From assembly GCA_905233965.1 (NCBI GenBank), contig CAJOFG010000028.1, forward strand, positions 2,944 to 13,955: a stretch of DNA of 11,012 nucleotides, given 5' to 3'. The DNA comes from an uncultured Selenomonadaceae bacterium. GTDB taxonomy: Bacteria; Bacillota; Negativicutes; Selenomonadales; Selenomonadaceae. The position numbers and the translations under genes were made by a program. This document shows positions 1 through 11,000 of this stretch, piece after piece; position 1 is the stretch's first letter, and each line of letters starts with the position of its first letter. The notes beneath the pieces were generated by a model. It saw only the letters and a program-made list of their open reading frames with translations, did not search any database and was not told where the DNA came from.

Positions 1-350
1 TAAGCGCGAATCAAACCGCCGGCTCCCAACTTTATCCCGCCGAAATATCGCGTCACGACAACTGCGGCGAAAGTCAATTCGTTTTTCTTTATCGTTTCCA
101 AAATCGGGTTGCCCGCCGTCCCGCCGGGTTCGCCGTCGTCATTCGATTTTTGTTTGTCGCCGTTCTCGCCCAAAATCCACGCCGAACAATTATGCCGGGC
201 ATCAAAATATTTTTTGGAAATTGTTTTCACAAATTCCCGCGCCGCATCCTCAGAAGGAACTTGCCGGACGTTCGCGATGAATTTCGATTTTTTAATTTCG
301 TACTCTGCGGAAAAAATTTCTCCCGCCGCAAAAGTTTTGTAATTTTTCAT
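1..350 (-). CDS. yigZ: YigZ/IMPACT (UPF0029) family protein, N-terminal part, cut by window edge
   Basis: The first 116 codons can be read on the minus strand from the ATG at 350-348; the C-terminus lies beyond base 1. Family hallmarks are in order: KSKFIA near residues 21-26, ARHNCSA at 51-57, DDGEPGGTAG at 71-80, and TRYFGGIKLGAGGLIRA at about 100-116. These define the conserved N-terminal domain of the YigZ/YvyE/IMPACT family. The family is linked to translation regulation in eukaryotes (IMPACT binds GCN1), but the bacterial role is poorly defined. The start overlaps the stop of the upstream gene as ATGA, so translation is probably coupled. The family is normally about 200-215 residues, so roughly half is visible. 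Family assignment is very likely; function is not. Confidence 0.93.
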   Translation of the reverse strand, partial: MKNYKTFAAGEIFSAEYEIKKSKFIANVRQVPSEDAAREFVKTISKKYFDARHNCSAWILGENGDKQKSNDDGEPGGTAGNPILETIKKNELTFAAVVVTRYFGGIKLGAGGLIRA

Positions 351-1945: not shown

Positions 1946-2985
1946 TTGGAAAAATATGAACACGGCGGACGGGTTTACGACGAAACCGGCGCGACGGAAA
2001 ATTTTATCGACTTCAGCGCGAATATAAATCCGCTCGGTTTCCCGGACTCCGTTCGACTTGCTTTACAAAAAAATTTTGCCGGCATCGTCAACTACCCCGA
2101 TCCGGATGCAGTCGAATTGAAAAGTGCAATTTGCAATCGTTACGACGTGCGCCCGGAAAATTTGGTTCTGCTGAACGGTGCGGCAGAATTTTTTTATTTG
2201 TACGCGAATACTTGATTCCGGTACCGTGCTTTTCGGAGTACGAACGCGCCGCCCGCTCCGCCGGTTGCGAAGTCGAATTTTTTTTCACGCGGGAGGAAGA
2301 AAATTTTCGCCCGGACGTAAAAAAAATTATCCGGCAAATAAAATCGGCGGGCGCGGACTTAATCATAATCGGCAGACCGAACAACCCGACCGGGAATTTG
2401 ATTTCGCTTGAAGAAATTCCGGAACTTGCGGAAGTCGTGCCGGTTCTGCTTGACGAAGCGTTCATGGATTTTTTGCCGGAAGTTTCGGCGATGAATTTTG
2501 TTTCGGAAAAAATTTCCGTCGTGCGTTCGCTGACGAAAATTTTCGCAATACCCGGTTTGCGTTTGGGATTTGCGGTTGCCGACGAAAAAGTTGCCGCACG
2601 ATTAAATTTTTCAAAAGACGTGTGGAACGTAAATTTTTTGGCACAGAAAGCCGGAGTCGCCGCGCTGTCCGACGAAAAATTTTTGCAGGATACGCGCAAC
2701 CTTTTGGAGGGGGAGAAAAAATATTTTGTCGAACGGCTGAAAAAAATACCCGGCATAAAATTTTTTGAGCCGCACGTAAATTTTATTTTACTGAAATTAA
2801 ATTCCGGCGACGTTGCGGAAAAAGTTTTGCGAAAACTCCGGGAAGAAAAAATTTTGCTCCGGAGTTGCGCCAACTTTCCGGGACTTGACGAAAGATTTTT
2901 GCGTTCGGCGATTCGTTCGCGCCGGGAAAATATTTTGTTACTCGACACGTTGGAAAAATTTTTCGATAAACCGGCTCCGGAATGA
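1946..2985 (+). pseudogene. cobD: cobD, threonine-phosphate decarboxylase, disrupted by frame change
   Basis: Two adjacent frames encode the halves of one PLP aminotransferase-fold protein. Part one runs from a TTG at 1946 (GAGG at 1932-1935) to a TGA at 2213-2215 and has HGG, FIDFSANINPLG, NYPDPDA and LNGAAE, typical of CobD/CobC. Part two, in the -1 frame from about 2200 to 2985, has LIPVPCFSEYER, GRPNNPTGN, DEAFMDF and the PLP lysine motif SLTKIFAIPGLRLGF. CobD makes (R)-1-amino-2-propanol phosphate from L-threonine phosphate for the cobalamin lower-loop linker. Against my recollection of Salmonella CobD, the NG to PxF interval is about 16-19 bases short, so a small deletion in the helix-strand connection plus frame loss is the simplest reading. 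A T7 run (2189-2195) at the junction also allows a sequencing error or -1 slippage. HisC is less likely given the HGG and DFSANINPLG start. Confidence 0.85.
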
Positions 2986-9681: not shown

Positions 9682-9710
9682 TTGACAATCTTAAATCGCC
9701 GGTGTAATAT
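9682..9710 (+). promoter_or_regulatory. Consensus promoter driving the cobalamin riboswitch
   Basis: A perfect TTGACA (9682-9687) and TAATAT (9705-9710) are spaced by 17 bases. The predicted start near 9717 is about a dozen bases before the aptamer P1 stem. It is one of the strongest promoters in the window. Confidence 0.87.
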
Positions 9711-9721
9711 TTCGTCAAATT

Positions 9722-9900
9722 GAATAACGATTGGATCAAGTGTCGCAAGACTTGATAGAGAATCCGGTCAAATGCCGGAACGGTCACGCCACCGTAGCGG
9801 GGAGTGCGTTTGCAAAAGTTATGTCACTGAAGAAAATTTCTTTGGGAAGGCGCAAACAAACCAAGATCCGAAGTCGGGAGAACTGCTTGATTGACAATCA
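9722..9900 (+). ncRNA. Cobalamin (adenosylcobalamin-type) riboswitch aptamer
   Basis: Conserved parts occur in order. P1 pairs GATTG (9729-9733) with CAATC (9895-9899), extended by GATCAAG with CTTGATT. A hairpin ATCAAGT/ACTTGAT leads into GATAGAGAATCCGGT, like the classical ATAGGGAAxCxGGT. Then come AACGGTCACGCCACCGTAGCGGGGAG, the TGTCACTG box (9822-9829), GGGAAGG (9844-9850) after an arm closed by GTTTGC/GCAAAC, and the B12 box AAGTCGGGAGAACTGC (9871-9886). These are the diagnostic elements of the Cobalamin family, and the long peripheral arm suggests the AdoCbl class. Unusually, no B12 transport or synthesis gene follows; only hairpins and terminators do, before the 3' end of a convergent gene. 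Confidence 0.93.
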
Positions 9901-9988
9901 CCGCCGAAGAAAATTTTTTTGACGAGAAAAATTTTTTTCAAACCTGCGAGTGACGGGGATGGGGATTCACGAATTTTGATTCGGAATT

Positions 9989-10016
9989 TCCGGTTTTTTG
10001 CCGGATTTTTTAATTT
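9989..10016 (+). terminator. Rho-independent terminator, possible riboswitch expression platform
   Basis: TCCGG (9989-9993) pairs with CCGGA (10001-10005), with a TTTTTTG loop, followed by T6 and AATTTT. It starts about 90 bases after the aptamer. The stem is short, so efficiency is uncertain. It is a candidate for B12-dependent termination, but I could not identify an overlapping antiterminator with confidence. Confidence 0.6.
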
Positions 10017-10018
10017 TG

Positions 10019-10062
10019 CGTCCCGTATTCGTTCGTTGAATTGCGGGACGTTTTCAATTTTT
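10019..10062 (+). terminator. Strong second hairpin/terminator downstream of the riboswitch
   Basis: CGTCCCG (10019-10025) pairs with CGGGACG (10044-10050), and ATTC (10027-10030) pairs inside it with GAAT (10038-10041), around the loop GTTCGTT. TTTTCAATTTTT follows. It is the most stable-looking hairpin in the region. Confidence 0.7.
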
Positions 10063-10075
10063 GGATTTGCCTTTT

Positions 10076-10095
10076 CCCTGTGAGGTATCACAAGG
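10076..10095 (+). repeat. Short hairpin TGTGA-GGTA-TCACA
   Basis: A perfect TGTGA (10079-10083) / TCACA (10088-10092) stem closes a GGTA loop and is extended by CC/GG beyond one mismatch. It is immediately followed by an AAGGAG-like sequence at 10092-10097, but no sensible reading frame starts after it. It could be a structural part of the putative RNA. Confidence 0.4.
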
Positions 10096-10139
10096 AGACA
10101 TTGCTCATACATTTCAAATTGCCGGATTTTTTTCGGCGC

Positions 10140-10172
10140 GACTTCGTTTTTTTAACGGAGTCTTTTTATTTT
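10140..10172 (+). terminator. Third plus-strand terminator
   Basis: GACTTCGTT (10140-10148) pairs with AACGGAGTC (10154-10162) over nine positions, one of them G-U, with a T5 loop; TTTTTATTTT follows. It would end any transcript from the riboswitch promoter before it enters the convergent SDR gene. Confidence 0.7.
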
Positions 10173-10179
10173 GCCGGGA

Positions 10180-10214
10180 AAATAAAAAACGCACCGACAA
10201 ATTTTATCGGTACG
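10180..10214 (-). terminator. Terminator of the SDR gene
   Basis: On the minus strand CGTACCGATA (10214-10205) pairs with TGTCGGTGCG (10199-10190) with an AAATT loop and two G-U pairs, then TTTTTTATTTT. It begins 14 bases after the SDR stop codon. Confidence 0.85.
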
Positions 10215-10227
10215 CCGGAAATTTTTT

Positions 10228-10975
10228 TTAAAAAGCTGACGAAGTGTAGCCGCTGTCGATTATGAAGTCCGAGCCGGTAATTTTTTTCGCTCTGTCACTG
10301 AGCAAAAACAAAACCGCACCGGTCACGTCGTCCGGATTGCAAACTCCGAGTAAGTGTTTCGATTCCACTTCCTTTAAGTAAAGCAATTCATCGTTGTCCG
10401 TCATTTCGGTTTTTACTCGACCCGGACTGACGGTATTTATCCGGTGAAAATTTTTTGCCAGATCATGAACGAAAGACTTTGCCGCAATTCTCACGGCGGC
10501 TTTTGTCGCCGCATAAACGGCTAAACCGCTCGGTGACGAATGCCCGGAAAATTACATACGACGAACCGGGATTTGCAAATTTTTTTCGCGTCGCCGTCTG
10601 CAAACTTTTTATCGCGCCCCAAAAACCGGTTTCCATTACATTTCTTGCGCCGGATTCATCAAAAAATCTTAACGGCGTTCTCATATCCGTGCCGGCCGTA
10701 TAAACTTCGCCGGAAATTTTTCCGTGCCGTTGAACAAATTCGCCGAGAACTTTTTCCCACTCTTCGCCGGTCGCCTTCGTCACGTCCAAAATTGCGAACT
10801 CAATCAAATCCGGGAATTTTTCGCGAAGTTTGTTCAAGCGTTCTTCATTCCGCGCAACTGCAAGTACATGAGCATTTGCCGCCGCCAATTCGAGAGCGGT
10901 TTGCCTGCCCATGCCGGAAGATGCGCCGACGACCAAAAAATTTTTTCCGGTAAAATCAAAATTTACTTCACTCAT
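10228..10975 (-). pseudogene. Short-chain dehydrogenase/reductase (SDR), frameshifted
   Basis: The two parts of one classical SDR lie in different frames. The first starts at ATG 10975 (weak GGTG upstream) and shows the cofactor loop VVGASSGMGRQTA, ARNEER and VYTAGTDMRTP in place of the NAG motif. It runs to SSYVI near 10552, then enters nonsense sequence. The second resumes as FSGHSSPSGLAVYAATKAA with the YxxxK active site, then NTVSPGRVKTEM and ITGSDFIIDSGYTSS, and stops at 10230-10228. The break maps to a T4 run (minus strand, 10551-10548). Two missing Ts would restore VIFSG; one lost base would give VFSG. It resembles SDRs found in glycan or fatty-acid reductase contexts; the substrate is unknown. 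A sequencing error in the homopolymer is a real alternative to a pseudogene, because the rest of the protein looks well conserved. Confidence 0.85.
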
Positions 10976-11000
10976 TTTATCACCGTTAATTTTCCACAAA

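What the first reader, a model, noticed from the sequence alone, without database searches (positions are those of the whole stretch)
9682..10172. Orphan cobalamin riboswitch heading a non-coding, multi-hairpin transcript
A near-consensus promoter and a complete B12 aptamer are followed by about 270 bases without a credible gene but with at least five hairpins, three of them terminator-like on the same strand, ending against a convergent gene. Known cobalamin riboswitches nearly always precede B12 transport or synthesis genes. The known exceptions (Rli55, EutX) produce small RNAs that sequester a regulator. This could be a new B12-controlled small RNA, or the scar of a deleted B12 gene. Conserved aptamer motifs and promoter argue it is still active.
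Basis: partly seen in the sequence, partly recalled or inferred. Interest (0 to 1): 0.75.

Follow-up and report, generated by a model that had tools for sequence, protein, structure and literature searches.

The report
B12-switched small RNA for B12 genes
In rumen bacteria related to Quinella, a vitamin-B12 sensor RNA seems to control a small RNA instead of a gene, and that small RNA matches the start regions of distant B12-making genes and a transporter gene, so one sensor could switch them on together when B12 runs low (predicted, not yet tested in the laboratory).

Summary
The window has a near-consensus promoter, a complete cobalamin aptamer (RF00174, 86.5 bits) and about 270 nt of hairpin-rich RNA without a credible gene. 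It is not a scar. The same layout (aptamer, terminator-like hairpin(s), hairpin, single-stranded TTGCTCATACAT, final terminator) was found in 46 of 60 same-genus (Quinella-like) genomes, and in Anaerovibrio, Megamonas and Schwartzia.

The complement of the core lies in 5' leaders of cbiK (41 of 52 read), cbiL (18 of 30) and a substrate-binding-protein gene (9 of 11), against 13 of 278 control leaders. In the window's own genome 25 consecutive nucleotides (10101-10125) are perfectly complementary to the cbiK leader, covering the arm predicted to sequester its Shine-Dalgarno site. Outside the core, sRNA arm and cbiK arm covary (permutation p = 3e-6), as do anti-SD arm and SD side (p = 2.5e-5).

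Best explanation: low B12 lets transcription read through into a trans-acting base-pairing sRNA that opens the cbiK leader. Known B12-riboswitch sRNAs (Rli55, EutX) sequester a protein; this one appears to pair with mRNAs. All evidence is computational; expression, B12 response and sign of regulation are untested.

The parts
9682..9710 (+). Promoter: -35 TTGACA, 17-nt spacer, -10 TAATAT
   Evidence: A TTGACN-16..18-TANNNT match lies upstream of the aptamer in 31 of 59 sRNA loci, 1.15 expected after shuffling.
9721..9904 (+). Cobalamin riboswitch aptamer (RF00174)
   Evidence: 86.5 bits, full length.
9905..9941 (+). AT-rich hairpin insert, absent from the relatives read
   Evidence: in relatives the CCTGCGAG element follows the aptamer within about 5 nt.
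9943..9958 (+). Conserved hairpin CCTGCGAGTGACGGGG of the expression platform (possibly P13; that name is recalled, not tested)
   Evidence: also present in riboswitch copies that precede genes.
9961..9991 (+). Predicted antiterminator hairpin, overlapping the 5' half of the next terminator
   Evidence: fold; coordinates. Inference.
9987..10011 (+). Terminator A (TTTCCGG-loop-CCGGA-TTTTTT)
   Evidence: By a lenient test without a shuffled control, a terminator-like hairpin lies between aptamer and seed in 62 of 62 sRNA loci.
10018..10063 (+). Second hairpin with T-rich tail before the sRNA module
10072..10098 (+). Hairpin directly 5' of the seed
   Evidence: fold; a hairpin closing within 6 nt of the core in 62 of 65 modules against 45 after shuffling, mean energy -12.2 against -7.3 kcal/mol.
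10101..10112 (+). Seed core TTGCTCATACAT, single-stranded in the predicted fold
   Evidence: Found without using the core as bait: 26 of 34 aptamer places in the genus with enough sequence downstream carry it. 12-mer in 53 of 60 same-genus genomes. Fold.
10101..10125 (+). 25-nt stretch perfectly complementary to the cbiK leader of the same genome (G000:C89, locus L083)
10140..10172 (+). Final terminator of the sRNA
   Evidence: a terminator was found within 138 nt after the seed in 56 of 62 loci.

Best explanation
The element is a trans-acting, base-pairing small RNA under control of its own 5' cobalamin riboswitch. With B12 bound, transcription ends at the terminator(s) after the aptamer (inferred). 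When B12 is low, RNA polymerase reads through into the module hairpin - seed TTGCTCATACAT - clade-specific arm - terminator (inferred). The seed pairs with the 5' leader of cbiK (sirohydrochlorin cobaltochelatase), and the arm pairs with the strand that sequesters the cbiK Shine-Dalgarno site. That frees the ribosome-binding site, so cobalt insertion into the corrin precursor goes up (complementarity and coevolution shown by computation; activation inferred). The same seed matches leaders of cbiL and of a periplasmic substrate-binding-protein gene, which would make it a B12 regulon linked by one sensor RNA.
For: (1) Conservation: of 34 aptamer places in same-genus genomes found through the aptamer and with enough downstream sequence (36 places in 29 genomes in all), 26 carry the exact core within 650 nt. 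The 12-nt core has 102 matches in 60 same-genus genomes, against 6 for the reversed-pattern control (my sums of the table). Of 95 distinct contexts read, 48 are sRNA modules behind a B12 aptamer (one also near cbiK), 27 cbiK leaders, 7 substrate-binding-protein leaders and 13 other. (2) The window's own genome has two exact core sites: this one and the cbiK leader, with 25 nt of perfect pairing. (3) Enrichment of T[AG]TGAGC in the 120 nt before the start codon: cbiK 41 of 52, cbiL 18 of 30, binding-protein gene 9 of 11; shuffled expectation 0.55, 0.35 and 0.18 leaders, reversed pattern 0 in all three; control genes 13 of 278. (4) Coevolution outside the core: sRNA arm against cbiK arm in 11 arm clusters, own-pair sum -152.6 against a permuted mean of -78.6 kcal/mol, p = 3.3e-6; anti-SD arm against SD side p = 2.5e-5. 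(5) Predicted SD unpaired probability in 38 leaders rises from 0.215 to 0.48 when the sRNA site is blocked; blocking the core alone gives 0.20 and a coding-side block 0.195. (6) sRNA and cbiK site co-occur, 37/42 against 4/10, Fisher p = 0.003. (7) Orientation is fixed: 41 cbiK leaders forward, 0 opposite. (8) The sign fits: B12 riboswitches are usually OFF switches (recalled), and cbiK and cbiL make B12.
Against: There is no expression data. In this one genome the reversed control pattern also occurs twice, so the own-genome count alone proves little; the 25-nt match does. Arm complementarity is absent or weak in G007, G028, G032 and G081, whose CbiK is only about 60-62% identical to the query, and in G004 and G006; G021 and G060 just miss the 1% line. 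Own pairing is best in its row in only 7 of 11 clusters. Blocking the site raises SD accessibility by more than 0.1 in only 25 of 38 leaders. For the window's own cbiK leader the fold depends on the 5' end chosen: 0.14 to 0.82 with a longer segment, 0.75 to 0.82 with a trimmed one. An earlier control that overlapped the anti-SD arm raised accessibility almost as much, 0.38. Five genomes have the sRNA but no cbiK site, and four the reverse. In Anaerovibrio-type genomes only 3 of 14 cbiL leaders carry the site, and no target is established for A. lipolyticus. For cbiL and the binding-protein gene, activation is not shown even in silico, and the binding protein's substrate is unknown. Homologous leaders are not independent, so permutation p-values are indicative.
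Confidence: 0.82

Rival explanations
1. Scar of a deleted B12 gene: an aptamer left behind with degenerate sequence.
For: The aptamer is orphaned here, and copies elsewhere precede genes: permease-like genes in L005, L020, L039, L051 (by eye), and cbiK in G003.
Against: The module was found in 46 same-genus genomes and in all 16 further Selenomonad genomes searched, which were chosen because they carry the core; 26 of 34 aptamer places found without the core have it, with hairpins on both sides and covarying arms. Scars do not conserve a 12-mer.
Confidence: 0.02
2. Protein-sequestering sRNA like Rli55/EutX: the hairpins bind an ANTAR or other regulator.
For: Same sensor (B12 riboswitch), a non-coding product and several hairpins.
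Against: The hairpin sequences vary between genomes while the single-stranded core does not, and the core's complement sits in B12-gene leaders. By eye the loops do not look like the ANTAR hexaloop pair (motif recalled, no formal test).
Confidence: 0.06
3. The shared motif is a DNA operator for an unknown transcription factor that acts at both the sRNA locus and the target promoters.
For: A short motif recurs near several genes of one pathway.
Against: At the sRNA locus it lies about 400 nt from the promoter, behind terminators. In cbiK leaders with a predicted promoter (31 of 38) the pattern rule places it downstream of that promoter. Orientation is fixed, 41 to 0, and the flanking arms covary as RNA pairs.
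Confidence: 0.05
4. The sRNA is real and pairs with the leaders but represses or destabilises them, for example as a timing or fine-tuning device.
For: For the binding-protein gene the site is close to the SD, core mostly at about -35 to -43, where many sRNAs repress (recalled).
Against: In cbiK the sRNA binds the anti-SD arm, not the SD. Repressing B12 supply when B12 is low would be counterproductive if the riboswitch is an OFF switch.
Confidence: 0.12

Closest known systems
Rli55 (Listeria monocytogenes) and EutX (Enterococcus faecalis), B12-riboswitch-controlled sRNAs
   Same: A cobalamin riboswitch controls release of a trans-acting non-coding RNA (passages of PMC8383071).
   Different: They sequester the regulator EutV and control ethanolamine use (same passages). 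Here the conserved element is a base-pairing seed matching leaders of B12-synthesis genes and a transporter gene.
SreA/SreB, SAM riboswitches acting in trans on prfA mRNA (Listeria)
   Same: A riboswitch RNA that binds a 5' UTR in trans (PMC8383071 passages).
   Different: SreA is the ligand-bound, terminated product. Here the pairing part lies beyond the terminators, so the read-through product would be active, and the predicted targets belong to the ligand's own pathway.
Riboswitch-regulated antisense RNA of Listeria (aspocR at pocR)
   Same: A riboswitch controls a non-coding RNA (title of the 2013 paper seen in a reference list; the name aspocR, its B12 ligand and locus are recalled).
   Different: It is a cis-antisense RNA of one neighbouring gene (recalled). 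Here the targets are unlinked, on other contigs or far away.
Anti-antisense activator sRNAs such as DsrA/rpoS (recalled)
   Same: sRNA pairs with the leader strand that sequesters the SD and frees it.
   Different: Those are not controlled by a built-in riboswitch.

Membership tests
Cobalamin riboswitch (RF00174) | Match to the covariance model above the gathering score | tested here: met
   86.5 bits against 31.5 for the window; 99 to 110 bits for the four sRNA loci scanned.
Cobalamin riboswitch (RF00174) | B12-dependent regulation | not testable with these tools
   Needs an assay.
Rli55/EutX class (B12-riboswitch sRNA sequestering EutV) | B12 riboswitch followed by a non-coding transcript with terminators | tested here: met
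   (sequence features; the transcript itself is not observed).
Rli55/EutX class (B12-riboswitch sRNA sequestering EutV) | ANTAR-binding dual hairpins | tested here: inconclusive
   Not apparent by eye in the folds; motif recalled, no model run.
Rli55/EutX class (B12-riboswitch sRNA sequestering EutV) | Control of eut genes through EutV | not tested
   eut genes and EutV were not searched for.
Trans-acting base-pairing sRNA | Conserved unpaired seed | tested here: met
   Core in 26 of 34 aptamer places found without it and unpaired in the predicted fold of the window's module. The 38 modules were sampled by the core, so their invariance is by construction.
Trans-acting base-pairing sRNA | Conserved complementarity to leaders of unlinked, functionally related genes | tested here: met
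   cbiK 41/52, cbiL 18/30, binding-protein gene 9/11; arm covariation p = 3.3e-6.
Trans-acting base-pairing sRNA | Expression and effect on target | not testable with these tools
   No RNA data available here.
Any described Rfam sRNA family | Match to an Rfam model for the region after the aptamer | tested here: not met
   Only sub-threshold matches in the window stretch and in five loci.

The most novel reading that the evidence does not exclude
A riboswitch that exports its ligand reading in trans: one B12 sensor RNA drives a base-pairing sRNA that coordinately activates unlinked mRNAs for B12 synthesis (cbiK, cbiL) and a transporter protein by opening their ribosome-binding sites, with sRNA arm, anti-SD arm and SD side of cbiK coevolving in three-way compensation across a genus. 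In a Megamonas and a Schwartzia genome the module is even multiplied in tandem behind one aptamer.
Probability: 0.72. Interest if true: 0.9.

Novelty: new variant of a known kind. Interest (0 to 1): 0.82.

Why it matters
Riboswitches are usually seen as cis devices; the trans examples in the review passages read here come from Listeria and Enterococcus and titrate a protein or reuse a terminated leader. A widespread, sequence-verifiable family in which a riboswitch controls a base-pairing sRNA with targets in the ligand's own pathway would show how one sensor can run a regulon without a regulatory protein. The three-way covariation makes the pairing directly testable, in part in cultured bacteria (Anaerovibrio).

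Tried and rejected
Rejected: gene scar (conserved module); coding sequence (no shared ORF apparent; no credible Pfam match); protein sequestration as the main function (no conserved loop pair by eye; seed complementarity instead). Rejected as targets: GAAATGTATGAGCGC/T, recurrent among the 41 genomes, read as leuA-like coding sequence in 6 of the 7 places fetched (names by eye); start-codon or coding coincidences such as gmk, der, a PTS gene and the gene before an S-layer-type gene (names by eye). Left open: what reads like a methylmalonyl-CoA mutase small-subunit start in G013 and a radical-SAM B12 protein in G088. Clustering target arms by single linkage merged 31 of 38 genomes and gave p = 0.004, own best in row 2 of 8; I replaced it by complete linkage, and both are reported. 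The first SD-accessibility control overlapped the anti-SD arm and was not clean; it was redone with other controls and trimmed 5' ends (predicted promoter in 31 of 38, fixed in 7, never closer than 18 nt to the site). The MAFFT alignment of modules cut the left arm of several hairpins, so I claim no column-wise covariation for the sRNA hairpin. The own-genome search for the substrate-binding protein found nothing, and CbiL matched only at paralogue level in the own genome (E 5e-4); the assembly is 86% complete. For cbiL I read the 30 best-matching of 54 full-length genes (my count); for the binding protein 11 of the 12 loci fetched gave a leader. For G034 the cbiK count uses the C28 copy, without a site; its second copy has one. 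Literature searches for a riboswitch-controlled base-pairing B12 sRNA found none in their listings; this covers only the held open-access library. Protein structure prediction was not used.

Full report
What is in the window. The aptamer is real: RF00174 at 9721-9904 (+), 86.5 bits, full length. A promoter TTGACA-17-TAATAT lies at 9682-9710. No credible gene follows. The stretch 9905-10200 folds far better than its shuffles (z = -5.5), although the count of single terminator-like hairpins is only modestly above expectation (7 against 3.3, both strands). Its ORFs have no credible Pfam match, and it ends at a terminator at 10140-10172, against a convergent SDR gene. The own genome (G000, 1.77 Mb in 223 contigs, 86% complete) has one more cobalamin riboswitch, before a FecCD-family permease gene (below the cut-offs of the BtuC and other NCBIfam models).

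Relatives. Searching 60 relatives with 551 nt of the locus gave matches in 47; in many same-genus genomes separate pieces after the aptamer matched as well. Read side by side (its output was cut in the middle), the loci share one layout: aptamer, hairpin CCTGCGAGYGACRGG, a variable part, one or more terminator-like hairpins, a short hairpin, the core TTGCTCATACAT, a clade-specific arm and a final terminator. The core was not used to find these loci: of 36 aptamer places in 29 same-genus genomes, 34 have enough sequence downstream, and 26 of these carry the core exactly within 650 nt. Of the eight without it, one is the own permease riboswitch and one (G003) precedes cbiK; L005, L020 and L039 precede a transporter permease-like gene by eye; the other three were not examined further. 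A named-genome scan with CATTGCTCATACATTTC returned 96 stretches. By the pattern rule, recounted and with the titles, 55 are Selenomonadales loci with a B12 box upstream, 5 are cbiK leaders, 4 are other Selenomonadales loci, and 32 lie in other or unassigned taxa (one of them with a spurious box), close to the roughly 30 expected by chance for a 17-mer in this collection (my estimate). Titles include Quinella sp. 2Q5, Anaerovibrio lipolyticus DSM 3074, A. slackiae, Megamonas and Schwartzia. B12 boxes were found by pattern in these loci; only the window, the second riboswitch of the own genome and four further loci were confirmed with Rfam.

The seed and its first target. The 12-mer TTGCTCATACAT occurs in 53 of 60 same-genus genomes, 102 times in all, against 6 for the reversed control, of which 2 are in the own genome (my sums). 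In the own genome it occurs twice: here and, in antisense orientation, in the leader of a gene with a CbiK domain (PF06180, 82.3 bits, contig-truncated). Of 95 distinct contexts read, 48 are sRNA modules (one of them also near cbiK), 27 cbiK leaders, 7 substrate-binding-protein leaders and 13 other; 46 genomes have a module. The CbiK name rests on Pfam (252 bits for a complete relative); the NCBIfam equivalog cut-off is not reached (198 against 400 bits).

Why RNA pairing. cbiK leaders share a plan: anti-SD arm, seed target, SD. The sRNA pairs with the seed target and continues into the anti-SD arm. In the own genome this gives 25 uninterrupted pairs, and own sRNA with own leader ranks 1 of 47 (-55.6 against a median of -36.4 kcal/mol with the other leaders). 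The rank is not 1 in most genomes, at least partly because near relatives share arms. The arm differs between groups (for example CAAATTGCCGG, TTGCTGAGGA, AAGTTAAGGGCGG on the sRNA), and the leader changes with it. With the core left out, 11 arm clusters give an own-pair sum of -152.6 against -78.6 (sd 13.1) for permuted pairs, p = 3.3e-6, own best in its row in 7 of 11; in 30 of 38 genomes at most 3 of 300 shuffles do as well. A first, cruder clustering gave p = 0.004. The anti-SD arm also covaries with the SD side (p = 2.5e-5; 29 of 42 genomes within the best 1% of shuffles). The eight genomes outside the 3-of-300 line are G007, G028, G032, G081 (CbiK about 60-62% identical to the query; no or little arm pairing), G004 and G006 (weak), and G021 and G060 (4 of 300).

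Predicted effect. In 38 leaders the median unpaired probability of the SD rises from 0.215 to 0.48 when the sRNA site is blocked. It stays at 0.20 when only the core is blocked and 0.195 when a coding-side stretch is blocked; 25 of 38 rise by more than 0.1 and none falls by that much. An earlier run gave 0.20 to 0.435, with one fall, and a control at 0.38 that overlapped the arm. For the own leader the result depends on the assumed 5' end; my promoter patterns found none there, and cbiK follows another gene on the same strand.

More targets. Leaders of cbiL (TIGR01467, above cut-off) carry T[AG]TGAGC in 18 of the 30 read, those of a substrate-binding protein (PF01497) in 9 of 11, and cbiK leaders in 41 of 52; shuffled expectations are 0.35, 0.18 and 0.55. 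The binding protein follows an ABC ATPase gene by eye, but its best NCBIfam match is an F420-0 transporter model, BtuF scores lower, and all are below cut-off, so 'B12 uptake' is an inference. Control genes: 13 of 278; some controls come from loci fetched because they carried the motif, so this is probably an overestimate. The cbiL sites tend to match the 5' part of the conserved block (GGCATTGCTCATAC) and the cbiK sites the 3' part (by eye), which would explain why the whole block is conserved. In the Anaerovibrio slackiae group the cbiL leader carries the site (3 of 14 Anaerovibrio-type leaders), and a leader that reads like cbiF carries a wobble version (name by eye). sRNA presence and cbiK site co-occur: 37 of 42 with sRNA, 4 of 10 without (Fisher p = 0.003); incomplete genomes blur this.

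How it most likely works. Shown by computation: aptamer, conserved module, complementarity, coevolution, predicted SD opening for cbiK. Inferred: B12 causes termination before the seed; low B12 yields the full sRNA; pairing activates cbiK and probably cbiL and the binding-protein gene. A predicted antiterminator (9961-9991) overlaps the 5' half of terminator A (9987-10011), as expected for a transcriptional switch.

Known relatives. Rli55 and EutX are B12-riboswitch sRNAs that sequester EutV; SreA is a SAM-riboswitch product that binds the prfA 5' UTR; a riboswitch-regulated antisense RNA is also listed (PMC8383071, passages read; aspocR's name and locus recalled). The present case joins the sensor of the first with the pairing of the second and targets the ligand's own pathway. 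No Rfam family matches the module in the stretches scanned. Searches of the held papers showed no report of it in their listings.

Noticed in passing
window 1946-2985 and 10228-10999: The CobD-like gene and the SDR gene are each split over two frames, which suggests assembly indels or pseudogenes in this MAG.
   Followed up: no
window 9905-9941: AT-rich hairpin insert between aptamer and the conserved expression-platform hairpin, not present in the relatives read.
   Followed up: partly
L106 (Megamonas sp. UBA1799, about 1750-2200) and L175 (Schwartzia): The seed module appears two or three times in tandem behind one riboswitch, with partly changed cores.
   Followed up: partly
L185, L190, L211, L212: In Schwartzia and other Selenomonads cbiK lies roughly 110-530 bases downstream of the seed, possibly the ancestral cis arrangement.
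   Followed up: partly
L005, L020, L039, L051: Copies of the same riboswitch type precede a transporter permease gene that reads like the Dpp/Nik type (by eye, no family search).
   Followed up: no
L364 (G013) and L368 (G088): The seed complement overlaps the start of what reads like a methylmalonyl-CoA mutase small subunit and precedes what reads like a radical-SAM B12 protein; both could be chance.
   Followed up: no
L014, L044, L046, L095, L097: Short AATTAGGAAT- or AGCTATCAGCT-like repeats sit in sRNA variable parts and in cbiK leaders, by eye without disrupting seed or anti-SD arm.
   Followed up: no
L214 (Megamonas sp. UBA1799): A seed-complement site follows what looks like another cobalamin aptamer (by eye), before an amidase-like gene.
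   Followed up: no
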